Both the position numbers and the translations under genes were made by a program. DNA of 64,000 bases from Labrenzia sp. DG1229 (GTDB lineage: Bacteria; Pseudomonadota; Alphaproteobacteria; Rhizobiales; Stappiaceae), in contig NZ_KI928927.1 of NCBI RefSeq assembly GCF_000521215.1, forward strand, positions 32,440 through 96,439, read 5' to 3'. The number at the start of each line of letters is the position of its first letter. The stretch's first letter is position 1. Shown here one piece after another: positions 10,145 to 36,496 of this stretch. The notes beneath the pieces are model-generated. The model saw nothing but the letters and a program-made list of their open reading frames with translations. It searched no databases and had not been told where the DNA came from.

Positions 10145-11523
10145 CAGAAGACGAGATCCTGATTGACAAACACCTTGACCTCATAGCCCTGCGGCAGCCG
10201 AATGATCGGAGGCAGACTGAGATATTCCTCGAGAACACTTTCAGTCTGATCGCCGAAGTCCTCGCTGACATCCGATGCAAGCGTTGTTGCTGCATCGCTC
10301 GATTCATCTCCGTCTGTGGCGACGGCGGCAATGAAGGTCGGGATCGCCGCGATGGTCGTGATGAGAGCCGCAGTTCCAAAGCGCTGCACAAAGCGTGAAT
10401 CGACGTTGCCCTCAACACCACCGCGGCCAAGCCGGTCAACACCCGTTGCGGCCAAAGAGATTGACCTTCCTTCAGGCGTGATGGCGCGGGTCCAAGCGAT
10501 CAAGACGCGCTTCTGGGCAATCGAAATGTCGCTGTTGTAAGTGCCAATCAACCGGGTGCCGGCCGGCATGAGGATTTCCATGCCGTCATATGAATAAACC
10601 GGCGAGGATACGACAGCCCGCATCGACCCAGGCAGCTCGGTGTTTACGGCCGTCTCCAGAACGGCGGTGATGATCGTTCCCTGGACGATCATTCGAGACA
10701 AATCACCGAGGTCGCGCGCTTTGGCGGTTTTAACCTCGGCATTTGCACTCTGACTTAGAAACCGCTCGTTCGATGACATGTCCTGAATCCCGGCGCCGCT
10801 CTCGCTGGCTCCGGATGTGGATCCTTCTTCAGACTCGTCATAAATGTTGCCATCGCTCAAACGACGTTCTTGCAGTTCAGCCTCACGAGCTGCCCTGCGC
10901 TCTTCCAGTTCTTTGAGCCGCCGAAGACGTTCCTCTTCATCAAGATCCGGACCAGTGGGAGTTGCGGGCACCGGGGCTCTCAAGCCAGCAAGTTTTGCCT
11001 CCATTTCAGCGCGCAACAGGGCCTCGCGGCTTTCAGCGGCTTGGCGATCGCGCTGTGATTGTTCTCGCAGGGCCGCTTGTAATTCTTCGGGAGAAATACC
11101 GGCGTTCGAGTTGACGACTGGAGCGGGCCTTTGCAAAAGAGCCTCGATTTGCGCTTGCAAGGCTTCGATCTGTTTTTCCAGCTCGGCAGACTTGTCCGGA
11201 GCTGGCGGGATCTCCGGTTCACTACGTTCCACCGGTCGAATGATGATTTCCGGTTCCTTGCGCTGGTTCGTGTCCAGACCTTGGCGCGGTCGCAAATTCG
11301 TGTTCAGGCCTGAGTTGTCGGTCTGAGATGTCTTTTGGATTGTCTCGCTTTCAGATGTCGAGAGACCCAGAATTTTTCCTAGTTCTTGCGGAAAAAGCAG
11401 GATCGCCGCCCCGATCGCAATGACAATAAAAAAGAGGACCATGAGGATGGGGCTCCTTGAGGAGCTGCCCCCTTCCATCCGTTGTCGCCGTGCGGTGAGC
11501 TTGTCTTCGGTGTCATCGCTCAT
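10144..11523 (-). CDS. virB10: Type IV secretion protein VirB10
   Basis: 459 residues. Energy-sensing channel subunit spanning both membranes. A short cytoplasmic N-terminus precedes a single membrane helix (PILMVLFFIVIAIGAAILLF, about 25-44). A long periplasmic linker rich in Pro, Gln, Glu and Arg with coiled-coil character (about 85-220) follows. The C-terminal TrbI-type beta-barrel domain includes IVQGTIITAVLETAVNTELPG and LMPAGTRLIGTYNS. Three bases separate it from virB9. Confidence 0.95.
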   Translation of the reverse strand: MSDDTEDKLTARRQRMEGGSSSRSPILMVLFFIVIAIGAAILLFPQELGKILGLSTSESETIQKTSQTDNSGLNTNLRPRQGLDTNQRKEPEIIIRPVERSEPEIPPAPDKSAELEKQIEALQAQIEALLQRPAPVVNSNAGISPEELQAALREQSQRDRQAAESREALLRAEMEAKLAGLRAPVPATPTGPDLDEEERLRRLKELEERRAAREAELQERRLSDGNIYDESEEGSTSGASESGAGIQDMSSNERFLSQSANAEVKTAKARDLGDLSRMIVQGTIITAVLETAVNTELPGSMRAVVSSPVYSYDGMEILMPAGTRLIGTYNSDISIAQKRVLIAWTRAITPEGRSISLAATGVDRLGRGGVEGNVDSRFVQRFGTAALITTIAAIPTFIAAVATDGDESSDAATTLASDVSEDFGDQTESVLEEYLSLPPIIRLPQGYEVKVFVNQDLVF

Positions 11524-11526
11524 GGC

Positions 11527-12255
11527 TTAGAACCCTGCATACCGCGCCGCGGCGGCGCTCGAAGCGACACAGATGGCCTCTCCACCGATCCGGACGGTCC
11601 AGCGATCGCTCACACCATCGACAATGAGAGTGCTGCCGGCGGACCTGGAGTTGACTGTGTACTCCTGTCCGCCTTGTCCCACTTTAAAAACGCCGGGCCG
11701 GCGCCGGGCGCTGTCAAAGACGAAATAGGTTTGTTTGCCATCGTCATAAACGGACGTCGGGGCAAAGTCGGCGCTGCCTGCAACGTTATAATCGTAGTTG
11801 CGGCTGCTGAGCGAAGTGGCATCTGAAAACTGCGCGACCACCGGCGTCGGGTACTGGAATGTGGTGCGATAGTTATACCCGCCCGTTCGCCTGCCGCTTC
11901 CAGCGTGTGAGTGGAGCTCGAAGGTATAAACACGACGATCCGTGTAGATGGTCATGTTGGTGATGGCATCCGAGTTGAACGGCTTGATGGAAATCACGTC
12001 GCCGCGCTTCAGGCGGATGATTTGCCAAGACGCACTGTCGCCCACCTGAATGGACTGAACGTTTTCGCCCCGGCCAAACTGAACTGTTGAGATGAAATTG
12101 GTGTGCAGGTCCAAGCGGTAGACGGTGTATTCGTTATAGACAAACTGCTTGATCTGCGACGCAGCCGGCAATGACTGAGGAATAGATTCAGCCATAGCCG
12201 AGGTCGCAAGGGTCGCAATGCACAGTGCCGTGCCGATCGCCTTTAAAAAAGTCAT
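11527..12255 (-). CDS. virB9: Type IV secretion protein VirB9
   Basis: 242 residues with a Sec signal peptide (cleavage near AMA/ES). Outer-membrane core complex subunit that, with VirB7 and VirB10, forms the channel cap. The N-terminal domain (VYRLDLHTNFISTVQFGRGE) and C-terminal domain (TSVYDDGKQTYFVFD) match the VirB9/CagX layout. The last codons of virB8 overlap its start by four bases. Confidence 0.94.
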   Translation of the reverse strand: MTFLKAIGTALCIATLATSAMAESIPQSLPAASQIKQFVYNEYTVYRLDLHTNFISTVQFGRGENVQSIQVGDSASWQIIRLKRGDVISIKPFNSDAITNMTIYTDRRVYTFELHSHAGSGRRTGGYNYRTTFQYPTPVVAQFSDATSLSSRNYDYNVAGSADFAPTSVYDDGKQTYFVFDSARRRPGVFKVGQGGQEYTVNSRSAGSTLIVDGVSDRWTVRIGGEAICVASSAAAARYAGF

Positions 12256-12932
12256 TGTGTGCCCCTATTGGTAAGTGTTTCCGCGTCAACGCGGTAATTG
12301 GAAACCTTGAACCCGAGAGGGTTTGCCCAGACGGCCTGCAGGTTGCGTTCAACCTTTGGTTCGAAGACGAAGCGGACCGTCGCTACGAAGTCCCGTTCCA
12401 CGTCCGGCATTCCGTATTCCTCGAGCGTTTTTCGGAAGCGAACCTGGGCCTGGTTGGATTCGAGAAGCGACATGGAGACGATGGTCACCTTCAGGCGATT
12501 CCGGTCCTCGTAGAGGTTGGGCGGGTAGTCTTCGCTACCGGAATTCCAGAGAGTCCTAAGGCTTTCGGCCGCCTGGTCCTTAGATCGGGTCAACACATCG
12601 GGAATCCGGGTGGCATTGTCCGCGACATCGTAGGTTTCCCGGTCTGTGACGTAGCGGACGAGTTCGGCCTGGATGACGGCTTCTTGTTCGGACAACGACA
12701 GCGGTTCGACCCGGGCCAGGCGCTCCGCCTCGCCGGTCGTCCTGTCGACCATTACGAGATATGGCTGCACTTCCTTCAGGGGCAGAAGCATCGCGACAAA
12801 GCCGATGCAGGAGATCGCCAAAATCAGGCACAGAATGGCGACAATCGCCCAGATGTTCCTCTGCCGACGAAGCGAAAAGAAGACTTCTTCCTCGAAAGAG
12901 TAAGCGACTTCAGCGGGCGTTTTTTGAAGCAT
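12252..12932 (-). CDS. virB8: Type IV secretion protein VirB8
   Basis: 226 residues. Inner-membrane assembly factor with a cytoplasmic N-terminus, one membrane helix (WAIVAILCLILAISCIGFVAML, about 29-50) and a periplasmic NTF2-like domain including PYLVMVDRTTGEAERL and YPPNLYEDRNRLKVTIVS. The start is fixed by the family-typical N-terminus MLQKTPAEVAYSFEEEVF. This start lies 109 bases inside the 3' end of virB6. Confidence 0.93.
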   Translation of the reverse strand: MLQKTPAEVAYSFEEEVFFSLRRQRNIWAIVAILCLILAISCIGFVAMLLPLKEVQPYLVMVDRTTGEAERLARVEPLSLSEQEAVIQAELVRYVTDRETYDVADNATRIPDVLTRSKDQAAESLRTLWNSGSEDYPPNLYEDRNRLKVTIVSMSLLESNQAQVRFRKTLEEYGMPDVERDFVATVRFVFEPKVERNLQAVWANPLGFKVSNYRVDAETLTNRGTQ

Positions 12933-14041
12933 TGTCCGAGCGACCTGTTATTCAATTTTCTGGAGGGCTTTTCGGGTGTTTGACCGAGGGACTGTCCAGT
13001 GGGGCCGCGCATATATGACAAGTCGGAGTAACGCTGCCGGTCCCGGCTCATGCGTGAGGCTTGCGTGATGAATGCTGCCATCTGAGCAGACCGGCCGCCG
13101 CCCCGTTCCTGAACGCCTGCAGCAGCTTGCCTGCCGGCATCCATGCGGGCGGCTGCGCTATAGGCGACTGTGGCGGGCGATGCCGCGGCGCTGGCTGCCG
13201 TCCTCGACATCCTGATGGCATCAGCCACACCGGTTCCAACAGCAACAACGCTTCCAGCCAAGCCGGTTGCGTAGGACGGAACGTTTTTCATCATGAAGAT
13301 CGCAGCCAGGGAAACGATCACAAAACCGGCAATGTCTGAAAGTTCGGTTGCAGTTGGTGTTGTGTTCATGATTTGACGGCCGACACTAATGACAGCCCCC
13401 ATGATACCGGCCAGGACAAGCGGAATTAATGCAACACCGATTGTCGCCCGAGACCAGGATTCAAAGAGTTGGCGTGTGCCGTTAAATGCAAGCGCGCCAA
13501 TGGCCAACGGTGCAATCGATACAAAAAGCGCCAGACCGATCTTGCCGATGGCAGATATGGCGATAGCGATAAAGGCCATGATGGCCCCAAGAACCATCAG
13601 CAGGACTGCCGAAATGCTGATACCGAGCCAACCAGATTCTTCGTTCATTTGGTCGGAGTAGTTGAAAATTGACGTCACCATGTCATCCATGGCTGAGTTC
13701 AGACCGGCATTGTCGCTCACCCCTGCCCCTGCGGCTGAAAGCAAAGCTCCACCGTAGTTTTGCGGTACATCGGTGATTATGTCGTAGATGGGTTGGAATT
13801 GGGACCAACTGGTCGCGACGGCCAACACAATGATGTAGCGCACCGACCAGGTGATATAGCTGCGCATGCTGACCGTCGAAAAAGCCAGGATTGAGTTGAC
13901 CGCGATCAACGCGAGACCGACCAGTCCGGCAGCGACGAGGACAGTGTTGACCTCCGAAGATACCCCAGTAAAGACCGACTGCGCATAGCTCGCGATTGCC
14001 GAGTCGATCCTGTCGAGCGTGTCGGTAATGAAGGAGGCCAT
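12824..14041 (-). CDS. virB6: Type IV secretion protein VirB6
   Basis: 405 residues from the ATG at 14041 (MASFITDTLDRIDSAIASY), chosen because the open frame above it has no family character. Polytopic inner-membrane channel component with at least five hydrophobic segments (for example VLVAAGLVGLALIAVNSILAF and GLALFVSIAPLAIGALAF). The final ~36 residues are read in another frame of virB8 and look non-native (FKKRPLKSLTLSRKKSS). The C-terminus may therefore be extended by a small indel near 12960, or the overlap may be genuine. Confidence 0.9.
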   Translation of the reverse strand: MASFITDTLDRIDSAIASYAQSVFTGVSSEVNTVLVAAGLVGLALIAVNSILAFSTVSMRSYITWSVRYIIVLAVATSWSQFQPIYDIITDVPQNYGGALLSAAGAGVSDNAGLNSAMDDMVTSIFNYSDQMNEESGWLGISISAVLLMVLGAIMAFIAIAISAIGKIGLALFVSIAPLAIGALAFNGTRQLFESWSRATIGVALIPLVLAGIMGAVISVGRQIMNTTPTATELSDIAGFVIVSLAAIFMMKNVPSYATGLAGSVVAVGTGVADAIRMSRTAASAAASPATVAYSAAARMDAGRQAAAGVQERGGGRSAQMAAFITQASRMSRDRQRYSDLSYMRGPTGQSLGQTPEKPSRKLNNRSLGQCFKKRPLKSLTLSRKKSSFRFVGRGTSGRLSPFCA

Positions 14042-14505
14042 TAATTGACCTCCCTCAATTTCCCATTGTAGACTCCTGCTTTGACGCAAGCATTAAATGC
14101 AATGTCCCTATATCTGTTGCCTTCCGCTGAAAGGCTCAGATCTCTATTCAGCACCCAATTGTGCAAGTCTTCTTTGCTGAGAGACCCGTAGTTCTTCGGC
14201 ATCATGGCAAGGATAGCGTCATAGTCACGCCGGTCGATCAGACAACCAAACTCGGCAGGCTCACCACGTTCGTATGCTTCACAAATTCGTTTCTCTTCCT
14301 CAAACTGCCATATGCCAGTGAAGTGATTTAGCAGTTGCTCGGCCATTCCATTTTGGGCGTTCTTCTCGAGAAATGCCTTGTGCGCATCGCCACCTAAAGA
14401 CGACTGATACCCGCATCCGAATGACTTTTTTGAGCCAGCCTGGGCGGCACCGGAAACGGCGATCAACGATACCGCGATCAGTAGTGTTTTCATCATGCCG
14501 ATCAT
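14041..14505 (-). CDS. Secreted hypothetical protein in the VirB operon
   Basis: 154 residues starting MIGMMKTLLIAVSLIAVSGAAQAG, a clear Sec signal peptide with cleavage after AQA. The mature ~130 residues are hydrophilic and helical with three or four cysteines (FGCGYQS, RICEAYE, FGCLID, NACVKAG), suited to disulfides in the periplasm. Its start overlaps the virB5 stop and its stop touches the virB6 start, so it is translated as part of the operon. It sits between virB5 and virB6, where other systems may carry an entry-exclusion gene. I cannot assign it. Confidence 0.75.
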   Translation of the reverse strand: MIGMMKTLLIAVSLIAVSGAAQAGSKKSFGCGYQSSLGGDAHKAFLEKNAQNGMAEQLLNHFTGIWQFEEEKRICEAYERGEPAEFGCLIDRRDYDAILAMMPKNYGSLSKEDLHNWVLNRDLSLSAEGNRYRDIAFNACVKAGVYNGKLREVN

Positions 14506-15269
14506 TCCCCTTCTTTATCGCCAACGAGGATGAACTTCCGGCCGGCGATGACATCGCGGGCGGTCGCAGCCTGGGACATGCCAACAGCGTTGGCATTGGC
14601 AGACTGAACACGCAGAAGCTCGACAAGAAGGACCGCCACCTCGGCCTGGACGCGGGTGTTGTAGTCAATCGAGGCCTTCAGGTCCGGGGTGCTGTTGTCG
14701 ATGCCGTCAATGAGGTCCGTGACCCGCTTCGCGGCAGCATCGGCTTTGGTAAAGCCGTCTTCTGCGGTCGCAACGGCCGTAACCCCAGCCCCCGCCAGTT
14801 GTGCTGCTGCCTTGTCGATGGTGTGTTCCGACGACATGAGGGCACTCAGGTTTGTGAACCCGAAATTGTTTTTCAGCTCGTCAACCTTGGCTTTGATTGC
14901 AGTCGCTTGGCCTGCAATGTCGCCGCCGCTCATGACAGAAGACATGATGCCGTTCAGCGACTCCGCAGACTGTCTCAAATCCTTGAGTTCCTGCGAATTC
15001 AGAATGCCTGCAATCTCTTTGACGCCGGTCATCGCCGTGAGCTGCGAAATCTGTGTCGTCAACTGCTCCTGCATGTTGAGCAATTGTTCTTTCATGGTCG
15101 CGAGCTGCTTAAGCTGCTCGGCATAGTCCTTGACCTGGTTCTCGACCTGAGTGATGGCCTGGGCGATGCTGGCGGCATCGATCACGGGGATGCCGCTGGC
15201 GGACGCACTTCCGCTCATGACGACGGATACGACGCCGGCCAACAGGACTTTTCTGACTGTTCTCACCAT
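14502..15269 (-). CDS. virB5: Type IV secretion pilus-tip protein VirB5
   Basis: 255 residues. A signal peptide (MVRTVRKVLLAGVVSVVMSGSASAS) is followed by a long helical domain (ITQVENQVKDYAEQLKQLATMKEQLL) typical of VirB5/TrbJ minor pilins that sit at the pilus tip and contact recipient cells. The ATG at 15269 is preferred over the upstream TTG at 15272. It shares one base with the stop of the small lipoprotein gene (TGATG), which implies coupled translation. Confidence 0.88.
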   Translation of the reverse strand: MVRTVRKVLLAGVVSVVMSGSASASGIPVIDAASIAQAITQVENQVKDYAEQLKQLATMKEQLLNMQEQLTTQISQLTAMTGVKEIAGILNSQELKDLRQSAESLNGIMSSVMSGGDIAGQATAIKAKVDELKNNFGFTNLSALMSSEHTIDKAAAQLAGAGVTAVATAEDGFTKADAAAKRVTDLIDGIDNSTPDLKASIDYNTRVQAEVAVLLVELLRVQSANANAVGMSQAATARDVIAGRKFILVGDKEGE

Positions 15270-15403
15270 CAAGCTATTCCTTCGCTATGAGCGTTGAGGG
15301 GCCTGTAATCGCAGGCGCAGGGAGATTTGTATTCCGTGGGCATGCCGGCGCATCCCGATAAGCCCAGAGCGATCGCAACGAGCAGCAATATTGTCTTTGT
15401 CAT
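15269..15403 (-). CDS. Small lipoprotein, VirB7 candidate
   Basis: 44 codons: MTKTILLLVAIALGLSGC is a lipoprotein signal with lipobox LSGC at Cys18. A mature peptide of 27 residues with a CAC pair follows. The gene starts inside the virB4 stop (ATGA overlap) and ends inside the virB5 start (TGATG overlap), so expression is tightly coupled to both. Size and lipidation fit a VirB7-type or entry-exclusion lipoprotein, although VirB7 normally lies between virB6 and virB8. No other VirB7 candidate is visible. Confidence 0.75.
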   Translation of the reverse strand: MTKTILLLVAIALGLSGCAGMPTEYKSPCACDYRPLNAHSEGIA

Positions 15404-17760
15404 TTGTAGCCCTTCCAAAAATCGGGATCGTTACGCCACCCTGCAGGAGCTCCTTCGCCGTTGCCTCCACCCAGGACGCTCATGAGGGGGCCGAGGGGGC
15501 CAAGGTTTATATCGACGATGGAACTGGTATCGCCTGAGCGCACGAGCGCGAGGCGATGGCCGACATTCGAGCTGATGGCAAAATCAAGCTCATTGTCGGT
15601 GAGACGAAGCGGTTCAAGCTCTTCGCGAGTGCTCTTGTTCGATGGGTAAATCAGCAAGGTTGCAACACCGGACAAAATGGCACTGCCGGCAGCGCTTTCC
15701 GTGATGTGAGACGCTTGCTGGGTCAACAACACAACGGCCACGTTCTTTTTCCGCATGGTGAGCATCCAGTCCTTAAGACGGGTGCGGAAATAGTCATCGT
15801 CCAGAAGCTTCCAAGCTTCGTCCAGGACAATGAGCGTTGGCCGTTTGTCTTCGACGGTTCGCTCGATGCGCCGGAAAACGTATGAGAGCCAGGCCGTTCT
15901 TGTTTGCGGGTTGTCGAAAATCTCCGAAACATCAAACGCAGTGATGTCGTTTTCAAAGGTGAGGCTGTCCTTGCCTTCGCCATTGAACAGCCATCCAAAC
16001 TGCCCGGTCTTGTCCCATCGGCCCAGACGCTGATGAAGATCACCACCGTCATTGGTTGAGCGAAACTGCGATCTGAAATGGCTCAAGGTCTGAAGGTTTT
16101 CTTCAGCGCTGCGGTTGGCCGCACAGGCGCGGCCCAGAGCCTCGATTTGAACCGGGGTCAACTCGCCATCTTTGGGCTTGAGCAGACTTTCCAACCAGTC
16201 TGCAAGCCAGGCGCTACCCCGTTCGTCTGCCTCGGACGAAAACGGATTGAAGCCCGTGTTCGTGCCGACCTGGACGATATTGTAGCTTCCGCCCAAGGCC
16301 CGGATCGCCATTTCGAAGCCGTGGTCTTTGTCGAAAACGATCAGGCGTGCGGAAAGTCGAAGCGCTTGGGAAAGCAAAAACGCTGTCCCCAGCGTCTTGC
16401 CGGATCCGGTCCGGCCGAGGACGAGAGAATGCCCAACAACCGGTTCGCTTTCGGGCGAACCTGCCAAGTGGAAATTGAACCTGTAGGGCTCACCATTTCC
16501 CGTAGGGAGAATGGTGATCGCCTCTCCCCAATAGGATTTGTCTTTTGGCAAACCCCTGGCTGACCCGTGCAAGGCCGACAAGTGTGCGAAGTTCAACGAG
16601 CTGATGGAGGACGCTCTTGTCCGATAGCTGTAATTGCCTGGGACTTGTGCAAAATAGGCCGGGCGGGCGCTGAAGTTTTCGCGGAGGACAGAGGCGCCAG
16701 AGCCGGTCAAGATCCGGTCTACAATTGAGATGTTCTCATCGAGTTGCCGATCATTTTCCGCGTATAGCGCAACCGTGCAATGGTGCTTCCCGAAGGCAAC
16801 GCGCCCTGATGCAACGTCGTCAAGCGCCCCGTTCAGTTGCAGCTGCAACGAGACTGCCGCGTCGTCGGCGACGCTCATCTGCCGGATAACGCGCCTTATG
16901 TCTTCCTGGGCCGACACCGGATCTTGAGGTGTGAACGAGTTGGTCACACACATGTCGATGCCCAAATCCAGGAGATCCAGGATGCCGGCATAAGTTTCTG
17001 CCGGATAATCCTTCAGCGTTAGAATCGTCCCGGTTTTTGTCGTCTGCGAATGGGTTCCGAACAACGTGAAAGCATCGTTCTGGAAATGGATCGGCGTTGT
17101 TGCGACCAGGTCGTTCAATGGCACATAGCCACGACTTGGCTTTAAGGGCGCAAAATCTCCCGTTAGAACAGCCCGGAATAGCCCCAACCATTCACCACTT
17201 GAAACGGTCAACCGCCTTGGGCGGGCGGGCCGCGCGATTTCTATGAAGCTGGAAGCAATGTCGTTTAGACGCTGTGCGCGCCTGGCGATCCGCTCGGCAT
17301 TCCCTTTTTTACCGGCGCCGCGCAACCGGTCGAAAAGACCCGATATTCTCGATGGCCTGAGCGTGAGCGTAAAGACTGTCGTGCGATGACGAAGTTCGGC
17401 CGAGCGCAAATGCTCTTGCCACCGCGCATCGATCGCGCCGGCAAAGGTCTCTGTATCCGCAATCGGATTGAGTTCCGGTTTAACCTTGGAAGAGATGCGA
17501 TGAACGTAAAAGCCGACGTCGCCATATTGCTGAGCAATCAGGTTCGAGATGGACTGTGCCAGCGTATCGATGTCGGTTTCGTTCATCGTTTGCGCGGCCA
17601 AACCGTCAACCGCAAACGATGTCATGAGGTCGCCGTCTCGCAACATCATGGTTTCGTCGTTTAGGAGGGACACGAAAGGCAGATGCGCGGCAAGAGATTC
17701 CGGCTTTGTTATCGCCGGATCCAAAAGGCTGCTGACCGCAAGGGACTGGTCACGGACCAT
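15400..17760 (-). CDS. virB4: Type IV secretion ATPase VirB4
   Basis: 786 residues, full length. Largest ATPase of the system, on the cytoplasmic face of the inner membrane, powering pilus assembly and substrate transfer. Walker A GRTGSGKT at about residue 450 and Walker B LIVLDEAWKLLD at about 645 are intact, with the downstream VLLTQQASH glutamine motif. Its start overlaps virB3 by 11 bases. Confidence 0.95.
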   Translation of the reverse strand: MVRDQSLAVSSLLDPAITKPESLAAHLPFVSLLNDETMMLRDGDLMTSFAVDGLAAQTMNETDIDTLAQSISNLIAQQYGDVGFYVHRISSKVKPELNPIADTETFAGAIDARWQEHLRSAELRHRTTVFTLTLRPSRISGLFDRLRGAGKKGNAERIARRAQRLNDIASSFIEIARPARPRRLTVSSGEWLGLFRAVLTGDFAPLKPSRGYVPLNDLVATTPIHFQNDAFTLFGTHSQTTKTGTILTLKDYPAETYAGILDLLDLGIDMCVTNSFTPQDPVSAQEDIRRVIRQMSVADDAAVSLQLQLNGALDDVASGRVAFGKHHCTVALYAENDRQLDENISIVDRILTGSGASVLRENFSARPAYFAQVPGNYSYRTRASSISSLNFAHLSALHGSARGLPKDKSYWGEAITILPTGNGEPYRFNFHLAGSPESEPVVGHSLVLGRTGSGKTLGTAFLLSQALRLSARLIVFDKDHGFEMAIRALGGSYNIVQVGTNTGFNPFSSEADERGSAWLADWLESLLKPKDGELTPVQIEALGRACAANRSAEENLQTLSHFRSQFRSTNDGGDLHQRLGRWDKTGQFGWLFNGEGKDSLTFENDITAFDVSEIFDNPQTRTAWLSYVFRRIERTVEDKRPTLIVLDEAWKLLDDDYFRTRLKDWMLTMRKKNVAVVLLTQQASHITESAAGSAILSGVATLLIYPSNKSTREELEPLRLTDNELDFAISSNVGHRLALVRSGDTSSIVDINLGPLGPLMSVLGGGNGEGAPAGWRNDPDFWKGYK

Positions 17761-18025
17761 ATGTTAGCCCCTTTCCCTGTAATTGACTTTTTTTGATCGG
17801 GGTCGCGCGAATGGTCACAATCAGCACATTGAAAATATGCGGGTCGTAAGCGGCCAACAGCCTCAACGCGGCGTATCCAAGGGCAAGGCTGATCACGAGA
17901 TAGATGATTGAAAGGGTGGCAATGAAGCCACCCACAACGATGATCATGAGTGTTGCGACATAAGCCATCGGTAGCCCCATGAAACTTACGGGTCGCGTCA
18001 GACCTTTGAACAATGGCGCTCGCAT
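17750..18025 (-). CDS. virB3: Type IV secretion protein VirB3
   Basis: 91-residue inner-membrane protein. The N-terminus APLFKGLTRPVSFMGLP is the family hallmark, followed by two hydrophobic segments (YVATLMIIVVGGFIATLSIIYLVISLALGY region) and a polar tail. VirB3 works with VirB4 in pilus assembly, and the 3' end overlaps virB4. Confidence 0.92.
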   Translation of the reverse strand: MRAPLFKGLTRPVSFMGLPMAYVATLMIIVVGGFIATLSIIYLVISLALGYAALRLLAAYDPHIFNVLIVTIRATPIKKSQLQGKGLTYGP

Positions 18026-18042
18026 AACCGGAGGCTAAGTCC

Positions 18043-18327
18043 TTAGAAACCAGCGAGAATGGTGGCCGACCCGAACAAAATAACGAGGCCGAGGACCACT
18101 GAACCGGCAAACACCCAATTCATGCGGCCGGTCATGAAGAGGAAACCGATCGCGCACAATGCGACCAGGCCGATGGCCCGGCCGAGCGTGCCGGTTAATG
18201 CCGTGCCGATGGTCGTGAAGAAGGTGGTCACGGGCGAGAGATCCTGCGCCATCGCAGGGTTGGTTAAAACGAGAGCGGCAAACGCAGACAGAACGGCCAA
18301 ACGGCCAAAGTTATTCAAAATTCCCAT
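18043..18327 (-). CDS. virB2: Type IV secretion major pilin VirB2
   Basis: 94-residue prepilin. Signal peptide MGILNNFGRLAVLSAFAALVLTNPAMA with cleavage near AMA/QD, then two hydrophobic helices separated by a short basic loop (TGRMNW), the usual VirB2 topology. The mature part is about 67 residues. Its start overlaps the virB1 stop by 13 bases. Confidence 0.92.
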   Translation of the reverse strand: MGILNNFGRLAVLSAFAALVLTNPAMAQDLSPVTTFFTTIGTALTGTLGRAIGLVALCAIGFLFMTGRMNWVFAGSVVLGLVILFGSATILAGF

Positions 18328-28397: not shown

Positions 28398-29519
28398 CTA
28401 GGCGGCGGTCCTTTGAAAACTGAGCATTACTGCTTCCAGAGCCTCTTCGCGACTAAACGGTGCGCGGTCATCGACAAGATCCAAACTTGCTTCGGCGAGT
28501 TCAAGAGCCTCAGAGAGGGTGATGATGGAACTGATGCTGGGAGCTGCCGACTGAGCGAGCACCTGAGAAATTTTTGAGAATACCAATTCATGTGATGAAA
28601 CACCGAGTGCTTGTGCAAGTGGGTCAAACCTTTCGGGACGCGCTTGATACGCTTGCTCTACCACTCCCGGAATAAGTAAACTTGCCGCATAACCGTGGGG
28701 GATCCCGAGTTGAGGACCCGCCAAATCTGAAAAATGATGAGAGAATGTCAATCCGGAGCCGGTGCTAAACGAAAGAGCTGAGAACGTCGCTGCAATCATC
28801 ATTGCATCGCGCGAGCGTGGATTGCCACCAGCGATGGCTAAGGCAAAATGTTCGTTGACCCATCTAAGGGCCTGCAGCGAAAAGCAGTCCGTAGTCGGAA
28901 AAGCCCGCGGAGAGATATACGCTTCCAACGCCTGGCAGAATGCATCCAGCCCACTTACAGAAGTCTGAGTAGGTGGAAGAAGGTCCGTGAGTGAGGGATC
29001 AAGAATAGCCAATCTTGGATGGCAACCGCCCTTCGCGAAGCCAATCTTCGCACCGGTCTTATCGTCGACAACGGCAACGCCGCGCGTGACTTCCGCACCT
29101 GTGCCTGCCGTGGTTGGAATGGCTACGAGAGGCAACACTGATCTGACCGAAGAACCACCTTCGCCGAGATAGGCTCGATAGTTGTGATACACGCCGGCCG
29201 CCGTGACAGCAATCACCTTGCCAATGTCGATTACGCTTCCTCCACCAAGCGCAACGACTCCATCGCAACCTGATGCGCATGCCACTTCTGCCGTGACAGA
29301 TAGCAAATCCAGACTTGGTTCCCCATTCTGCAATTCATGACTAACTAACGTGACATTGGTACTGGCCTCAATGAGCGACGCTATTGATGACAGCGCCGAG
29401 TCAAAAAGAAAAAACACTCGCTTGACGCCTAGAGATTCCAATTTGTTGTTCAGTTCTTGCAGTTTTCCCCTTCCAAAGACAATTTCGGTCGGGCAGTAAA
29501 ATCGACAATTCGGGATCAT
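28398..29519 (-). CDS. Iron-type alcohol dehydrogenase family protein, atypical metal site
   Basis: 373 residues of the Fe-ADH/dehydroquinate-synthase-like fold. NAD-binding GGGSVIDIGKVIAV and PTTAGTGAEVT are normal. In the metal region the usual DAxxHAIEAY reads DAFCQALEAY, so the second metal-binding His is Gln. The later His pair reads SHHFSD and IPHG, with Asp where many members have the catalytic-pocket His. The metal dependence or reaction may differ from classical reductases of short aldehydes. Last gene of the 28-34 kb operon; its start overlaps the stop of the kinase-like gene (ATGA). Confidence 0.85.
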   Translation of the reverse strand: MIPNCRFYCPTEIVFGRGKLQELNNKLESLGVKRVFFLFDSALSSIASLIEASTNVTLVSHELQNGEPSLDLLSVTAEVACASGCDGVVALGGGSVIDIGKVIAVTAAGVYHNYRAYLGEGGSSVRSVLPLVAIPTTAGTGAEVTRGVAVVDDKTGAKIGFAKGGCHPRLAILDPSLTDLLPPTQTSVSGLDAFCQALEAYISPRAFPTTDCFSLQALRWVNEHFALAIAGGNPRSRDAMMIAATFSALSFSTGSGLTFSHHFSDLAGPQLGIPHGYAASLLIPGVVEQAYQARPERFDPLAQALGVSSHELVFSKISQVLAQSAAPSISSIITLSEALELAEASLDLVDDRAPFSREEALEAVMLSFQRTAA

Positions 29520-30172
29520 GGAGAAAACCTCATGTACTCAAGCATTTCGTCTGCGTAAGCAGCCCAGTCCATACGGCTTGTGTCGATGGACAACTTGGGG
29601 GGACGGCAAATCTCAAATAAGCGATCGATCACATCGCGTCGCCTCTGAAACTCAGCAACCTGCGCATCGAAATTGCCCATTTGATCGAGATATCGGCCCC
29701 AGCCAGGTCCACGATAACGGCGCGTTGAGATCACGGAACGTTCTGCCACCAAATCCGACGGAAAACTGAGGCGGACTATTGCTAAGTTTGCACTAGCGCG
29801 GAGGTTATCCAAGTATTCAATCTGGTCCATCGGCTCAATGCGCAACTCAGCGCAAAGGTTTAGCAGCCAGCTCTCCGCCATGACGACGGTCTTGGGATCG
29901 ACGTCACGCGACGGCCAGGTGGCGCTCACTCGCGTGAGCTGTTCAATGATACGTAGGGGACTAGCTAAAAAGGCGGTAAGATCATCAAGCGAGCCAGTTG
30001 CACTAAAAGTTTCGTAAAAGCGCGTTTGTATCAGATTGTTTCTAAGAACAAGCAGTGACGTGTCCTCTCTCGAAACTAGCTTGGACGTGACCAATCTAAA
30101 CATTGTTGACTTGCCGACTCCGGTTACACCGGCAAAAGCGATCCCAGCTATCATTGGGTTGACGATCCTCAA
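29516..30172 (-). CDS. P-loop kinase-like protein 1
   Basis: 218 residues. Walker A GVTGVGKST at about residue 15-23 in an otherwise unfamiliar small NTPase. A putative Walker B/DE-like stretch (TVVMAESWLL) lies near residue 95, and basic lid residues (STRRYRGPGWGRYLDQMG) near 150-165. It resembles thymidylate- or adenylylsulfate-kinase-like folds but not closely. It shares the lid and C-terminal pattern with the next gene, so the two are paralogues. Cytosolic; substrate unknown. Confidence 0.75.
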   Translation of the reverse strand: MRIVNPMIAGIAFAGVTGVGKSTMFRLVTSKLVSREDTSLLVLRNNLIQTRFYETFSATGSLDDLTAFLASPLRIIEQLTRVSATWPSRDVDPKTVVMAESWLLNLCAELRIEPMDQIEYLDNLRASANLAIVRLSFPSDLVAERSVISTRRYRGPGWGRYLDQMGNFDAQVAEFQRRRDVIDRLFEICRPPKLSIDTSRMDWAAYADEMLEYMRFSP

Positions 30173-30267
30173 CGGTTCAGAAACTTCATTTCAGATACGG
30201 CGAACAACTCGGCCTTCGATCGAACGGGCTCGTGATCTGAAATGGGCAGTTGTGGCTGCGGTGTGAT

Positions 30268-30963
30268 TTAGCCGGCATCGAAGTCGACTATCTTTTCCAA
30301 CGCTTCACTCCAATTTTGCTCTGTCGTGTCTACTGTCAGTATGGGAAGAGCTGATTCGGCTGCCAATCTCTCTAAGTTTGCTTGACGGCGCTTGAAATGA
30401 TTTACGAGGGCCAACTCGGCTTTGCCGTAACGGGAAAGAAAGGCGGCCCAGCTCTGACCGCGATGGCGAATCGTTGAACGAACGCAATTTTCAATCATTG
30501 CCTCGGGTTCGACACGCAATAACACGACACGCGCTCCAAGCGACATTAGTCGCCGATCTATGCGTCTCACAAAAGCCGGCTGGCAGCTCTCGCTTAGTAG
30601 GTCCAGCGCGAGGTAGTAATGGAAGCTCTCAAAAATAAAACTGCAGCTACCACGGCCGTCGGAACGATGAGCAAACTCACTTGAGGAATAATCATCGTGG
30701 AGACTCTTAAGCAGGCGCAGTCGCGATTCCGCCAACGAACTCGGGCACCCCTGATTTGCCATGCGAAGAGTATAACATTGCGAAAGATATATGCCGCCAT
30801 CCTGGCCAGTGAAGTGCTGCTCCTGAAGCAACCTCCTAAAGAGCGTAGATTTGCCTGTACCGCTAACACCCTCGAAGATGATGCCCTGGAAGCTCAAACC
30901 ACGGATCCCACTATCCACTTCGCTGCCTTCCTTTGCCACCGAGGCGTATATCTGCATCGCCAA
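30268..30963 (-). CDS. P-loop kinase-like protein 2
   Basis: 231 residues. Walker A GVSGTGKST near residue 34, FIFESFHYYLALDLL in the place of the E/D-S segment, and a lid region STIRHRGQSWAAFLSRYGK followed by FKRRQANLERL. Paralogue of the 218-residue gene downstream, 95 bases away. Its N-terminal ~23 codons overlap the end of the nucleotidyltransferase gene; a downstream start is possible but would trim little before the P-loop. Confidence 0.75.
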   Translation of the reverse strand: MAMQIYASVAKEGSEVDSGIRGLSFQGIIFEGVSGTGKSTLFRRLLQEQHFTGQDGGIYLSQCYTLRMANQGCPSSLAESRLRLLKSLHDDYSSSEFAHRSDGRGSCSFIFESFHYYLALDLLSESCQPAFVRRIDRRLMSLGARVVLLRVEPEAMIENCVRSTIRHRGQSWAAFLSRYGKAELALVNHFKRRQANLERLAAESALPILTVDTTEQNWSEALEKIVDFDAG

Positions 30964-31960
30964 AAAGCATCGAAGCGGGCTTGATGTGCAACAAGAAGGC
31001 GCAGGGAGGCAGATAAAATCTCGGTCGCTTCAGACGGCACTGTCGCGAGGTCATGAACGGGGAAAAAACGTGACAAAACAGACAGAGTAGCAGAACCAAG
31101 CGGCCTAAGTCCGACGCGATCGAGGAGACCCATCGCCGCCGGCCAATCAATGGGGCGCGCCTCGAACCTTATCAATTGCAAAATGTCCAAGTATCCGAGC
31201 AGCCCTTGTCTGAAGTATCCGTCTTTGGCGATATCCAGGAGTTTATGGACGAGATGCAATTCTCTAGGAAGCTGACAGCGTTGCCGACTGACGGGGGGGG
31301 AAGGGAGAAATGATTTACAATGCAATTTAAATCGAGATCTCGGGCTATTTGCGTATGAAGTTCAACAACAATTCCCCGGTCTGGGTGAATTAATTGAGGT
31401 AGGTGAAGGGTCTTCGATGTGCCGTGATATTCTTGTTCGAGTTCTTCAGCGTAACCAGCACGTTGCAGCTCTAGGATCGCAGCCTCGCTTTGTCTTGTTG
31501 GTATAAGTATATCGACATCGCTCATCGGTCGTATTGCAACGTCTGGATAATAGTGGCGACCCAACAAGACGCCTTTCAAGCCGTAACTAGGGATACCTTT
31601 TTGCCAAAGAAATTCTTGGACGATATCAAATTCCCGGTGTGAGGCAACGATTGCATCGCGGCTTTCTGCAAAAAGCACCCGCCATTTGTTCCAAATCTCG
31701 GACACATCTCCACTATAATGCTGCTTCAACAGTACATGCTCCAACGCACCATGGAGGCGATGCACTTCGATGGCGGGATAAATTGCATGTAAGGATTCGG
31801 AATTATGCCAGATCTCACTCGCCCAAGTCGTGTTGTTGCCAAGCAATAACAGATCAGAGATACGGTTCTTCTGCTCGCGGTCTAACGGCGGCAGCAAGCG
31901 GTGCGCAAAAATAAGCGCTCGCTTTGCGCCAAAGACAGACTTCTGACAAGTGTGGGCCAT
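30894..31960 (-). pseudogene. Nucleotidyltransferase family protein, frameshifted at a C8 tract
   Basis: The first frame (from MAHTCQKSVFGAKRALIF at 31960) contains GLKGVLLGRHYYPDVAIRPMSDVDILI, the fold signature of the uncharacterised NTP_transf_5-type nucleotidyltransferases, and IVVELHTQIARDL. At a run of eight G on the plus strand (31293-31300) the homology moves to another frame, RQRCQLPRELHLVHKLLDIAKDGYFRQGLLGYLDILQL, which runs to 30894. The corrected product would be about 355 residues. Similar enzymes occur next to HprK-like kinases in peptide-modification clusters. The tract could be a phase switch or a sequencing error. Confidence 0.75.
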
Positions 31961-31997
31961 GCGGTGCTCTTAACCGGTAACATTTAGACTGCTGTTA

Positions 31998-32492
31998 CTA
32001 GACGGAACGGGGAGAATGGGTTTCGTTGAAGGGAACCGAAAGCAGACGGGCCGTTCGCCAACTACCATCGCAGATGGAATCCCGCACCACCGTTGGGCGG
32101 AGATCGGCGTCTGCTAACTCTGCGAGAGGTAACCAGTGAAAAACGATATGAGGCTCCTGTGACACGATGCTAGTAAGTGGCGGTTGCACTAGGAAATAGT
32201 GCTCTACGCCATGATAAATCTTGTCCCGGTGCCAGAAGCGGTTTTCAACCACAAACAAAAATTGGGGAGGCTCAATTGAAACACCCATTTCTTCTTGGTA
32301 TTCTGCTCGCACACGTTCGCTAAGACTCTCGCCGTACTCCAATCTGCCTCCAGGAAAGGCGAAATTTGCTGTGTCGTCGTCGCTCGGTCGTTGAACAAGA
32401 ACACACTCGCCTCGAAAACAAAGACTGCGAACGCTCACTCTCGTGATTTGTGCGGCGGTAATCTTCTCAAAGAAACTATCTTGGCTGGTCAT
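31998..32492 (-). CDS. NUDIX hydrolase
   Basis: 164 residues. Nudix box GGRLEYGESLSERVRAEYQEEMGV at about 48-71 keeps the metal-binding EYQEE glutamates but has Ala at the usual Arg of REUxEE. The surrounding text (SVRSLCFRGECVLVQRP, FVVENRFWHRDKIYHGVEHYFLV) resembles the GDP-mannose/ADP-ribose-type branch. It hydrolyses nucleoside diphosphates linked to another moiety. It sits 37 bases upstream of the nucleotidyltransferase and 17 bases after the HprK-like gene, so it is co-transcribed. Confidence 0.88.
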   Translation of the reverse strand: MTSQDSFFEKITAAQITRVSVRSLCFRGECVLVQRPSDDDTANFAFPGGRLEYGESLSERVRAEYQEEMGVSIEPPQFLFVVENRFWHRDKIYHGVEHYFLVQPPLTSIVSQEPHIVFHWLPLAELADADLRPTVVRDSICDGSWRTARLLSVPFNETHSPRSV

Positions 32493-32509
32493 TACTGATC
32501 CTTCTAAGT

Positions 32510-33730
32510 CTAGCCGTGCGACAATAGTCCGGAGAGTTCCTCTGCTCTCCTAACATCGTTTCGTAGGTTCTGTCGGAGCTCATCCACATCTCCGAAACCG
32601 TACGCAACCCTGAACACGTCTGCGTTCTGAACAATTCTCTCGAGCATTTCTCTGACCGCTTCACTGCACACCTGTCGTGGTAGAAGCCACGGATTACACC
32701 ATTTCTCGTCGATCGGCGTCATGACCTGTCCGGAAAGCTCGTCTAACGCCTGCTGATGATTAAGTTTCGTCATTTTTACGCCACTGCCGGTTTTTTGGAT
32801 GGCTGGCACCAGAATTCTCTTCAGCTTTCCGCCGCCGCTATGCGGTACACGCATAAACTGCGATATTTCCAACGGTGTTAGCTCAAGTTTTATTCCAGAG
32901 CCAAAGGTAGCTGCTTCGCTCGTTTCTCCAGCCAACCGAGGATCCTGAGGGCGGTAGAGTGTACTAAGGTCCGGGACGTGCAAATTAGGGAAAGCTCTTG
33001 CGGTACCCCAACCAACGCGGATCGCCATCGGGAACGGTAGCACTGCCAGCCCTTCCCCATCTTGCACAACTAACACCCGATCGTTGGCCAAATACTCCAT
33101 CTCAGAAATCAAAAGGCCGGTGAGCATAGCAGTAGTCTTGCCACAGCATTTATCCGCGACGATTAGCGTGACTTCCTCATCCTTCACAAAGCCACCTCCG
33201 TGCAGGAGGATACCACCGTGCGCTTCCAATTCCCGAAGGTACAATTCCCTAAGCACCCGCATTATCTGTGTTTTAACGTTTGGATTTGAGAGCACCAGGG
33301 TAACACGGTTTCGAACCGGTTCTTGGATGATCACAAATTTGGCGGAATGGTATAGAGGTTCCACTAGCCATATACGAAGCTCGGGCCACTCCCAACAGAC
33401 CATTTCGGGGTCGTCGACGAAGGTCTCTACCTTGAAGGTCGGCTCGAATTCCTGGACGATCGAGCTCACCTCAATACAGAGCTGCTCCGAAACGAGACAC
33501 CTGATCTCATGTTCAACCGGCAAACAACCAGATAAGCTGTAGGCAGTGTGGGGTAAGAAATGTTCAACAAGTTCGAACATTTCCGAGACTGCAAATCGAC
33601 ACAAAAACCGACAGTGTCCGAGCCAGAATGCTCTGGAAGAGGTATTCGACAACCGTCCGTCAATCTCTCTTATTCGTGCCGCTAAATCACGGCTCACCCG
33701 CGCGTCCAAGTCAGACGATTCTCTGCTCAT
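32510..33730 (-). CDS. HPr-kinase-like protein
   Basis: 406 residues. The C-terminal two-thirds carries LHGGGFVKDEEVTLIVADKCCGKTTAML with a variant P-loop (ADKCCGKTT), then YLANDRVLVV, which corresponds to the HprK/P base region ending in NDR. Such kinases phosphorylate proteins or small peptides on Ser, but the target here is unknown. The N-terminal ~130 residues are unassigned. The gene starts inside the carbamoyltransferase stop (ATGA overlap). Confidence 0.75.
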   Translation of the reverse strand: MSRESSDLDARVSRDLAARIREIDGRLSNTSSRAFWLGHCRFLCRFAVSEMFELVEHFLPHTAYSLSGCLPVEHEIRCLVSEQLCIEVSSIVQEFEPTFKVETFVDDPEMVCWEWPELRIWLVEPLYHSAKFVIIQEPVRNRVTLVLSNPNVKTQIMRVLRELYLRELEAHGGILLHGGGFVKDEEVTLIVADKCCGKTTAMLTGLLISEMEYLANDRVLVVQDGEGLAVLPFPMAIRVGWGTARAFPNLHVPDLSTLYRPQDPRLAGETSEAATFGSGIKLELTPLEISQFMRVPHSGGGKLKRILVPAIQKTGSGVKMTKLNHQQALDELSGQVMTPIDEKWCNPWLLPRQVCSEAVREMLERIVQNADVFRVAYGFGDVDELRQNLRNDVRRAEELSGLLSHG

Positions 33731-34690
33731 GCCGATACCTTTTCCCGCATCTGCAGAATTCTATTGAGCTCTTGCTCCGTTCGGGCTGCGACAAACCCTT
33801 GGATCATCAGACAATCTACGCGCGTTGCTGCAAGGAATTTAAGAGCATCGCTAGGGGTCTCGACTATCGGCTTTCCAGCTATGTTCATTGACGTATTCAA
33901 CAGAACGCCAATGCCAGTAATCTGATGGAAAGCCTTGATCACCCGAGCGAACCCGGGATCGTCGAAGTCATCCACCGTCTGTACCCGCGCTGATCCGTCG
34001 GCATGGGTTATGCCTGGCAAGCGCGACCGCCACTCGGGTCTGACGGAGCCGATCAACAACATATATGGCGAAGGTGCGCCCAGCTCGAAATAGCGGGCGT
34101 AGTCTTCGGATCGTACCGCTGGCGCGTAAGGTCTGTAGGGTTCGCGATACTTCACGCATTGGTCGAGGCGCTGTTTGATATCCGGATCCCTGCAGTCAGC
34201 GAGTATCGAGCGATGCCCGAGCGCGCGGGGACCGAACTCACTTCGACCATCGTAGCGCGCAACGATACATCCGTTAGCTATAAGGCAGCCTGTGAGATAG
34301 TCGGGTTCCTCAACTCTTGAATACGGAGTTCCTGCCGAGACTAAGGTTTTTTCGATCTCTTCGTCGTCGTAGATTCGCCCGAGGAAGGGCGATGGCGAAC
34401 GTGTCGGCAATGTCCGCGAGGTTTTGTTCCGGTACCATCCAAGATAAGCGGCACCTAGCGCAGTGCCGGCATCATGCGCTGCTGGCTGAACGAAAATTCG
34501 CTTAAAGGGGGTCTCTTTAAGAATGCGGTGATTTGCTATCGCATTCAGGAAGACGCCGCCAGCCAATTCTTGGGTTGTCGATCCTGCGTGGCCTGTTGCA
34601 TTGCTGCCTGGGCCTCGAGAAACTCAAGATTGGCGGCAAAGATTGCCATGTGTCGAGTAGAGTCTCGCGGAAAAAGGGCCGTCAATGGCG
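33727..34690 (-). pseudogene. NodU/CmcH-type carbamoyltransferase, 5'-truncated
   Basis: The intact frame (34566 down to 33727) is the C-terminal YrdC-like/Kae1-like half: LAGGVFLNAIANHRIL, QPAAHDAGTALGAAYLG, RSEFGPRALGHRSILADCRDP, KYREPYRPYAPAV and LLNTSMNIAGKPIVETPSDAL. Upstream, homology seems to continue in another frame (LTALFPRDSTRHMAIFAANLEFLEAQAAM), so there is a one-base shift near 34570. The N-terminal half, including the first metal- and ATP-binding region, is absent. Full-length enzymes O-carbamoylate natural products. The gene ends abruptly at the near-copy of the groEL end, so the truncation is probably the island edge. Confidence 0.75.
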
Positions 34691-34707
34691 GGCGCTCAGC
34701 AAAGCAA

Positions 34708-34740
34708 TTGAACGTCTGGCTTCTTGAAGGTCCATGCCGC
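34708..34740 (-). repeat. Near-copy of the groEL 3' end (possible att site)
   Basis: 33 bases matching 34828-34860 (groEL stop codon and last codons) at 28 of 33 positions by eye, same orientation, spaced exactly 120 bases. It lies between the truncated carbamoyltransferase and the groEL terminator. It may be an attachment-site remnant of integration at groEL. No integrase is present in the window. Confidence 0.5.
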
Positions 34741-34791
34741 GCTCGTGCTGCTAGGCGGTACGAATTGAAAATGATGAGTGTGGCGACATGC

Positions 34792-34818
34792 AAAAAGGGC
34801 GGCACAAGGCCGCCCTTT
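34792..34818 (-). terminator. Intrinsic terminator of groESL
   Basis: Inverted repeat AAAGGGCGGC/GCCGCCCTTT with a 5-base loop, followed on the minus strand by a run of five T. It starts 26 bases after the groEL stop. Confidence 0.92.
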
Positions 34819-34843
34819 CCAAAAGCATTGAACGTTTGGCTTC

Positions 34844-36496
<1,653 letters not shown>

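What the first reader, a model, noticed from the sequence alone, without database searches (positions are those of the whole stretch)
28398..34690. Unrecognised operon: carbamoyltransferase, HPr-kinase-like, NUDIX, nucleotidyltransferase, twin P-loop kinases and atypical Fe-ADH
Seven minus-strand genes, mostly overlapping or within 100 bases, combine enzyme types that fit small-molecule or peptide tailoring: a NodU-type carbamoyltransferase fragment, an HprK-like kinase, a NUDIX hydrolase, an NTP_transf_5-like nucleotidyltransferase, two related small NTPases and a reductase-type protein. I know HprK-like kinases and such nucleotidyltransferases from peptide-modification gene sets, and carbamoyltransferases and Fe-ADH from natural-product pathways. 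I do not recognise this whole set. No scaffold-building enzyme or precursor peptide is seen, and the 5' end is cut off, so the missing part may define the product.
Basis: partly seen in the sequence, partly recalled or inferred. Interest (0 to 1): 0.72.

Follow-up and report, generated by a model that had tools for sequence, protein, structure and literature searches.

The report
Tail of a hidden peptide-synthetase cluster
The odd seven-gene set is real, but it looks like the broken-off and partly decayed end of a larger peptide-building gene cluster that the genome assembly seems to have wrongly attached to a housekeeping gene, and its unusual kinase keeps similar helper enzymes around it in several unrelated gene clusters of other bacteria.

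Summary
The set exists: a NodU-type carbamoyltransferase C-terminal part, an HprK/PEPCK-like kinase, NUDIX, NTP_transf_5 (split between two frames), two related P-loop kinases, and an Fe-ADH with altered active site. The missing 5' end was found: contig C22 of the same genome ends with 203 bases identical to window 34365-34567 and carries the carbamoyltransferase N-terminal half. C22 is an NRPS cluster with thioesterases, GT2-like transferase, deacetylase, second NTP_transf_5, TauD and APH kinase. The groEL side recurs on contig C4, next to genes found downstream of groEL in 7 of 7 congeners fetched; the join at 34567/34568 is a misassembly or rearrangement. Three genes have frame breaks. The HprK-like family is rare. 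Elsewhere it sits in a fixed UDP-galactopyranose-mutase cassette (17 of 17 loci), with NTP_transf_5 and two small kinases in two 7-deazaguanine clusters, and near an APH kinase in 10 of 11 plasmid records. The window's own twin kinases have no clear relative in those loci. Most likely: phospho/carbamoyl tailoring of a glycosylated nonribosomal peptide. Substrate unproven.

The parts
33727..34567 (-). C-terminal part of a NodU-type O-carbamoyltransferase; its N-terminal half is on contig C22:50221-51343, which shares window 34365-34567 exactly
32510..33730 (-). HprK/PEPCK-superfamily kinase-like protein, 406 aa, CCGKTT P-loop, NDR motif, C-terminal TPxDxxWxxPW motif shared with the Vibrio and UGM-cassette relatives aligned but not with the deazaguanine or rSAM ones
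31998..32492 (-). NUDIX hydrolase; nearest plasmid relative 40.6% in Roseibium aggregatum, where no other island homologue lies within the 36 kb fetched
31172..31960 (-). NTP_transf_5 nucleotidyltransferase-like, N-terminal piece (profile 5-148)
30894..31325 (-). NTP_transf_5 C-terminal piece in another frame (profile 178-248); 8-base homopolymer at 31293-31300 in the stretch where the frame must change
30268..30963 (-). small P-loop kinase A (AAA_33-like, below cut-off)
29516..30172 (-). small P-loop kinase B, related to kinase A
28398..29519 (-). iron-type alcohol dehydrogenase family reductase with His to Gln and His to Asp in active-site stretches
34567..34568 (.). join between two sequences: operon side overlaps the end of contig C22, groEL side overlaps contig C4
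34568..34714 (.). groEL-side flank, identical (with 34567) to C4:934014-934161, which starts just after a 473-N gap; not part of the operon

Best explanation
The genes are the downstream tailoring operon of a large NRPS biosynthetic island, cut by mobile elements, whose other part is contig C22; the window's link to groEL is a misjoin of the assembly, or a rearrangement present in part of the culture. Shown by sequence: the exact contig overlaps, the N-terminal half of the carbamoyltransferase, the NRPS modules on C22, and the company of groEL in congeners. Inferred mechanism: C22 builds a short nonribosomal peptide (three full condensation domains and one partial, four adenylation domains, thioesterases) and a sugar part (GT2-like transferase, polysaccharide deacetylase). 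The HprK-like kinase, the small P-loop kinases and the APH kinase phosphorylate hydroxyls of the sugar or peptide. NTP_transf_5 adds to that phosphate, NUDIX and the PhoX phosphatase remove phosphates or spent nucleotides, the NodU-type enzyme O-carbamoylates, and the Fe-ADH-family reductase sets an alcohol. Because three genes have frame breaks and insertion elements cut the NRPS region, the pathway is probably no longer working.
For: C22 end = window 34567-34365, 203 of 203 bases, and C22 supplies Carbam_trans_N positions 5-62 and 126-345. Window 34567-34714 = C4:934014-934161 at 100%; C4 sequence from 935.9 kb on matches the groEL-downstream region, same direction, in 7 of 7 congeners fetched (7 of the 8 congeners searched). 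C22 has C-A-PCP-C-A-PCP, a further C-A-PCP-partial C, a free A domain, PCPs, two thioesterases, GT2-like, deacetylase, NTP_transf_5, TauD, class III aminotransferase and APH, and a radical-SAM gene. GC of the operon 0.519 and of C22 0.50-0.54 against 0.57 for groESL and the chromosome side. HprK-like and the rare GT2-like protein co-occur on C22+window, on the Vibrio halioticoli plasmid (GT2-like matched 2 of 72,556 plasmid records, one of them this plasmid) and in 17 of 17 UGM cassettes. HprK-like, NTP_transf_5, AAA_33 kinase, thymidylate-kinase-type kinase and APH in two 7-deazaguanine clusters. APH within 4 kb of HprK in 10 of 11 plasmid records with an HprK match.
Against: No read data: misjoin against real rearrangement cannot be decided. 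C4 has its own 473-N gap at the joint, and its first 1.7 kb after the overlap matched no congener stretch. The cassette GT2-like proteins are distant: the C22 protein matched 7 of 17 actinobacterial loci directly at 1e-4 and none of the Streptomyces plasmids at 1e-5; the rest are linked through each other. APH and NUDIX are large families. The C22 small kinase is a common type (189 plasmid records, top-ranked 54.5%), so its likeness to the cassette kinase means little. The window NUDIX is closer to a Roseibium one than to the cassette ones. No substrate of the HprK-like or twin kinases is known; the kinase A model is poor (pLDDT 45). A-domain specificities were not determined.
Confidence: 0.55

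Rival explanations
1. A lasso-peptide-type RiPP tailoring set: the HprK homologue phosphorylates a C-terminal serine and a nucleotidyltransferase attaches hexoses to the phosphate, as reported for paeninodin and pseudomycoidin.
For: HprK-homologue and nucleotidyltransferase pair described for lasso peptides (PMC8498205, passages read); both kinds are here; a radical-SAM gene whose Vibrio relative has a SPASM domain is on C22.
Against: No lasso B2 protein (PF13471) in the own genome, 0 of 1; the neighbouring scaffold enzyme is an NRPS; no precursor peptide was identified, though none was searched for.
Confidence: 0.1
2. A surface-glycan or polysaccharide modification locus: GT2-like, deacetylase, carbamoyltransferase and kinases decorate an exported sugar chain, and the NRPS genes are merely neighbours.
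For: HprK relatives sit in a cassette with UDP-galactopyranose mutase, GT4 and a GT2-like protein; the C22 and Vibrio GT2-like proteins have membrane-like segments at both ends, the cassette one at the N-terminus only by the same simple test; a carbamoyltransferase at 43.6% lies beside sugar genes in Azospirillum; GT2 and polysaccharide deacetylase ORFs overlap on C22.
Against: The GT2-like and NTP_transf_5 genes lie in one plus-strand run of C22 with thioesterase, NRPS and A-domain genes.
Confidence: 0.2
3. Chance accumulation of accessory genes in an insertion-sequence graveyard.
For: Transposase-like ORFs (by eye), N gaps and frame breaks; the window's twin kinases and Fe-ADH had no match in the HprK loci tested at 1e-4 and 1e-3.
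Against: Tight spacing with overlapping ends; HprK-like, NTP_transf_5 and small kinase recur in that order in two other genera, there without the NUDIX in between; HprK with GT2-like recurs in two other lineages.
Confidence: 0.1
4. Phosphate masking for self-protection: several kinases keep intermediates phosphorylated and inert, and an exported phosphatase (PhoX on C22) frees the product outside, as recalled for streptomycin.
For: HprK-like, two P-loop kinases and APH together with PhoX; phosphatase genes near HprK also in L126 and L129 (inositol monophosphatase by annotation) and L004 (His_Phos).
Against: PhoX is about 40 kb from the operon on C22; APH is a broad family.
Confidence: 0.2

Closest known systems
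Lasso-peptide kinase and nucleotidyltransferase pair (paeninodin, pseudomycoidin)
   Same: HprK-homologous kinase with a putative nucleotidyltransferase in a peptide-modification cluster
   Different: no lasso B2 protein in the genome; NRPS scaffold; carbamoyltransferase, NUDIX and extra kinases. That the lasso enzyme is of the NTP_transf_5 family was not tested here.
NRPS clusters with NodU/CmcH-type carbamoyltransferases (bleomycin and zwittermicin types, recalled); Streptomyces sp. NBC_01431 locus L028
   Same: NRPS genes beside a carbamoyltransferase; L028 is 46.4% identical over the matched part
   Different: none of the 13 annotated features of L028 is a kinase
Actinobacterial UGM-HprK-kinase-GT4-GT2-NUDIX-APH cassette (found here)
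   Same: HprK-like, GT2-like, NUDIX and APH families; HprK 22-26% identical to the window's
   Different: no UGM or GT4 match listed for any C22 ORF; NRPS and carbamoyltransferase only here
7-deazaguanine clusters of Streptosporangium sp. NBC_01495 and Amycolatopsis sp. AA4
   Same: HprK-like, then NTP_transf_5, then small P-loop kinase; a second, thymidylate-kinase-type kinase and APH follow (fused in Amycolatopsis)
   Different: deazapurine scaffold genes; HprK without the TPxDxxW motif; kinases not clear relatives of the window's

Membership tests
HPr kinase / HprK-related families | match above curated cut-off (Pfam; TIGR04355) | tested here: not met
   no Pfam family; TIGR04355 22.8 bits against cut-off 200
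HPr kinase / PEPCK fold superfamily | P-loop kinase fold as in PEPCK and HprK | tested here: met
NodU/CmcH carbamoyltransferase | Carbam_trans_N and Carbam_trans_C domains in one protein | tested here: met
   N part on C22, C part in the window, 203-base exact overlap; pieces not joined, so 'one protein' rests on the contig overlap
NTP_transf_5 (PF14907) | match above cut-off | tested here: met
   69.7 bits against 31.2 for the first piece; gene in two frames
Fe-dependent alcohol dehydrogenase | family match | tested here: met
   PF00465 1.8e-37
Fe-dependent alcohol dehydrogenase | conserved metal-site and catalytic histidines | tested here: not met
   His to Gln and His to Asp against 8zrl; role of the residues recalled
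Lasso peptide cluster | B2-type leader peptidase (PF13471) in the genome | tested here: not met
   0 of 1, own genome
Lasso peptide cluster | C-type cyclase and precursor peptide | not tested
   no dedicated search
NRPS cluster | condensation, adenylation and carrier domains | tested here: met
   C22 proteins
UGM-HprK cassette | seven genes in fixed order including UDP-galactopyranose mutase | tested here: not met
   17 of 17 actinobacterial loci have the order (UGM identity tested on L005 only); window and C22 lack it, and no C22 ORF was listed with a UGM match

The most novel reading that the evidence does not exclude
HprK/PEPCK-fold kinases together with an APH-type kinase, and often NTP_transf_5, NUDIX or one or two small P-loop kinases, form a portable phosphate-tailoring module that has been attached to at least four unrelated scaffolds: a nonribosomal peptide (here), a galactofuranose-type glycan cassette, 7-deazaguanine nucleosides and radical-SAM clusters. 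The module would phosphorylate and then nucleotidylate or glycosylate a hydroxyl of the product, a tailoring logic not yet described as a general one.
Probability: 0.3. Interest if true: 0.75.

Novelty: new variant of a known kind. Interest (0 to 1): 0.55.

Why it matters
It turns an unexplained orphan operon into the likely tail of an NRPS island, shows how one assembly join can hide a biosynthetic cluster, and points to a rare kinase family whose partners recur across phyla. The actinobacterial cassettes keep all seven genes and offer a system to learn what HprK-like kinases do outside sugar regulation and lasso peptides.

Tried and rejected
Single-protein scan of genome contigs with HprK: 7 stretches, none confirmed; viral contigs with profile A2: 172 stretches, none confirmed. 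HprK in 121 relatives: own only; in 385 genomes of the class: own plus two weak local matches (one of them has an APH gene next to it, the other an ATP-grasp and a NUDIX/His_Phos gene). Profile A4 in 398 genomes: 92 match at E up to 1e-4, but apart from the window gene no listed match covers more than 192 of 361 positions and most lie around the P-loop, so they were not counted as members and their neighbours were not read, save one in the own genome. GT2-like profile A6: 25 of 398, of which 24 weak and local. DNA-level search of plasmids with window 30268-34690: no match. C22 small kinase as a cassette-specific link: rejected, common family. Kinase A model: rejected, pLDDT 45. Site-specific island at the groEL 3' end: considered because of repeats near 34740 and 34860, rejected because several congeners carry similar repeats after groEL and because of the C4 overlap. 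Pbo/phaseolotoxin cluster: passages read (PMC8473136; 'kinase' and 'nucleotidyltransferase' occur 0 times in its text), set aside. Literature: 0 papers; of the hits only PMC8498205 and PMC8473136 were opened, in passages, the rest seen as listings. The fold library 'viral' was not used. A-domain motifs were looked at but no specificity was drawn from them.
Full report
Observation. The minus-strand genes at 28398-34566 are real and tightly packed (gaps -4, 17, 37, -70, 95, -4). Carbamoyltransferase C-terminus, NUDIX, NTP_transf_5 and Fe-ADH match above Pfam cut-offs. The 406-aa protein matches no Pfam family and only weakly HprK-related models, but its predicted structure is PEPCK/HprK-like (pLDDT 71). 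The two small kinases are related. NTP_transf_5 is split between two frames, with an 8-base homopolymer where the frame must change. The Fe-ADH lacks two usual histidines.

The missing 5' end. A search of the own genome for Carbam_trans_N found a second piece at C22:50251-51261, and one for NTP_transf_5 found a second gene on the same contig. C22 (51,343 bases) ends with 203 bases identical to window 34567-34365: the carbamoyltransferase frame runs from C22 into the window sequence. On the other side, window 34567-34714 is identical to C4:934014-934161. That C4 piece starts right after a 473-N gap. C4 sequence from 935.9 kb on lies, in the same direction, within 10 kb downstream of groEL in 7 of 7 congeners fetched (of 8 congeners searched); the 1.7 kb of C4 right after the overlap matched none of them. 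The two overlaps meet at base 34567. The simplest reading is that the assembly joined groEL to the operon wrongly; a rearrangement in part of the culture is not excluded.

What is on C22. PhoX phosphatase, Asp/Glu racemase, two free carrier proteins, a KSIII-like protein, a C-A-PCP-C NRPS stretch with a frame break near C22:21.1 kb and an N gap, transposase-like ORFs (by eye), a small P-loop kinase, two thioesterases, a GT2-like protein, polysaccharide deacetylase, amidohydrolase, NTP_transf_5, a C-A-PCP-C-A-PCP NRPS (2145 aa), TauD, an unknown 582-aa ORF (no Pfam family; no plasmid match), a free A domain, a class III aminotransferase, a radical-SAM gene in two frames, APH and the carbamoyltransferase. 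So the finding is, most likely, the tail of an NRPS island, probably decayed.

Distribution of the HprK-like protein. It is rare: 3 of 385 genomes of the class including the own, the other two weak and local; only the own of 121 relatives; no confirmed match in a single-protein scan of genome contigs. A five-row profile (the window and four relatives) found 15 loci, 14 actinobacterial and one Vibrio halioticoli. In plasmids 11 records matched, and all 11 were examined. They fall into four contexts. (a) Three Streptomyces plasmids, and all 14 actinobacterial genome loci, have a seven-gene cassette in one order: FAD enzyme, HprK-like, small kinase, GT4, GT2-like, NUDIX, APH (17 of 17; loci chosen by HprK). 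The FAD enzyme of L005 is UDP-galactopyranose mutase (7.7e-94). (b) Streptosporangium sp. NBC_01495 and Amycolatopsis sp. AA4: HprK-like, NTP_transf_5 and AAA_33 kinase in a row downstream of genes annotated for 7-deazaguanine, followed by inositol monophosphatase, a thymidylate-kinase-type kinase and APH, the last two fused in Amycolatopsis. This is the closest match in kind to the window's HprK, NUDIX, NTP_transf_5, kinase, kinase. (c) Five Streptomyces plasmids: APH and HprK-like in all five (Pfam), with a lactate dehydrogenase annotated between them in three and an NAD(P)-binding protein in one, and radical SAM plus methyltransferase after HprK annotated in three (radical SAM/SPASM confirmed for the two tested). 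(d) Vibrio halioticoli: HprK-like about 25 kb from NTP_transf_5, GT2-like, small kinase, radical SAM/SPASM and NUDIX on one plasmid; no match to two APH queries in the 49.8 kb read. APH lies within 4 kb of HprK in 10 of these 11 records; these are three cassette types, not ten independent cases. On the island here APH lies on C22 next to the carbamoyltransferase, which precedes HprK.

Results against. The window's twin kinases have no clear partner in the HprK loci; the best likeness is kinase B with the Amycolatopsis small kinase at 1.9e-4. Kinase B had no match in plasmids or phages, kinase A one distant match in plasmids. The C22 small kinase belongs to a common family. The C22 GT2-like protein matches the cassette ones directly in only 7 of 17 loci. 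The window NUDIX has its nearest plasmid relative in Roseibium, with no other island homologue in the 36 kb around it. A tree of 14 HprK-like proteins (5 of the 17 cassette loci, 3 of the 5 of type c) puts the window with Vibrio and the cassette proteins, but at 83/92, below the tool's threshold, and three rows have long branches.

Mechanism (inferred). Kinases of different folds, a nucleotidyltransferase-like enzyme, NUDIX and a carbamoyltransferase on an NRPS and sugar backbone suggest phosphorylation, further capping of the phosphate, and O-carbamoylation. The precedent is the HprK and nucleotidyltransferase pair of lasso peptides (PMC8498205, passages read), but no lasso B2 protein was found in this genome.

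Verdict. The truncated 5' end is an assembly join or a rearrangement, and the missing part is an NRPS cluster. The new point of wider interest is the recurring company of a rare HprK-like kinase. The literature searches for such combinations brought no paper whose listing or opened passages describe it; the listed papers other than two were not opened.

Noticed in passing
L005, L007, L008, L013, L015-L027: Conserved seven-gene actinobacterial cassette: UGM-type FAD enzyme, HprK-like, small kinase, GT4, GT2-like, NUDIX, APH, in the same order in 17 of 17 loci.
   Followed up: partly
L126:1837-13811 and L129:1744-13646: Clusters annotated for 7-deazaguanine with HprK-like, NTP_transf_5, AAA_33 kinase, inositol monophosphatase, thymidylate-kinase-type kinase and APH (fused to that kinase in L129).
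   Followed up: partly
L127, L128, L130, L131, L132: Streptomyces plasmid loci with APH and HprK-like (5 of 5), a dehydrogenase-like gene annotated between them in four, and radical SAM plus methyltransferase after HprK in three.
   Followed up: partly
window 34696-34861: Terminator-like repeats after groEL; similar repeats follow groEL in several congeners, and the genes beyond differ among congeners.
   Followed up: partly
G000:C4:933541-934013: 473-N gap at the place where the groEL-downstream sequence begins on contig C4, after an acetate-kinase-like ORF (read by eye); that scaffold link may be wrong too.
   Followed up: no
window 9155-18110: ORFs that look by eye like a type IV secretion (VirB-type) operon; no family search was made.
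   Followed up: no
L074:23541-31311: Vibrio halioticoli plasmid: ORFs that look by eye like a transposon operon inserted between the GT2/NTP_transf_5 genes and NRPS-like genes.
   Followed up: no
G000:C17:328091-328363: A second HprK-like ORF (404 aa) in the own genome, matched only around the P-loop (9.3e-14); no homologue of the island genes at 1e-3 within about 10 kb.
   Followed up: partly
L009:10852-16408: Paenibacillus plasmid with the only plasmid relative of kinase A (25%), near a UDP-GlcNAc 2-epimerase and an APH gene.
   Followed up: no
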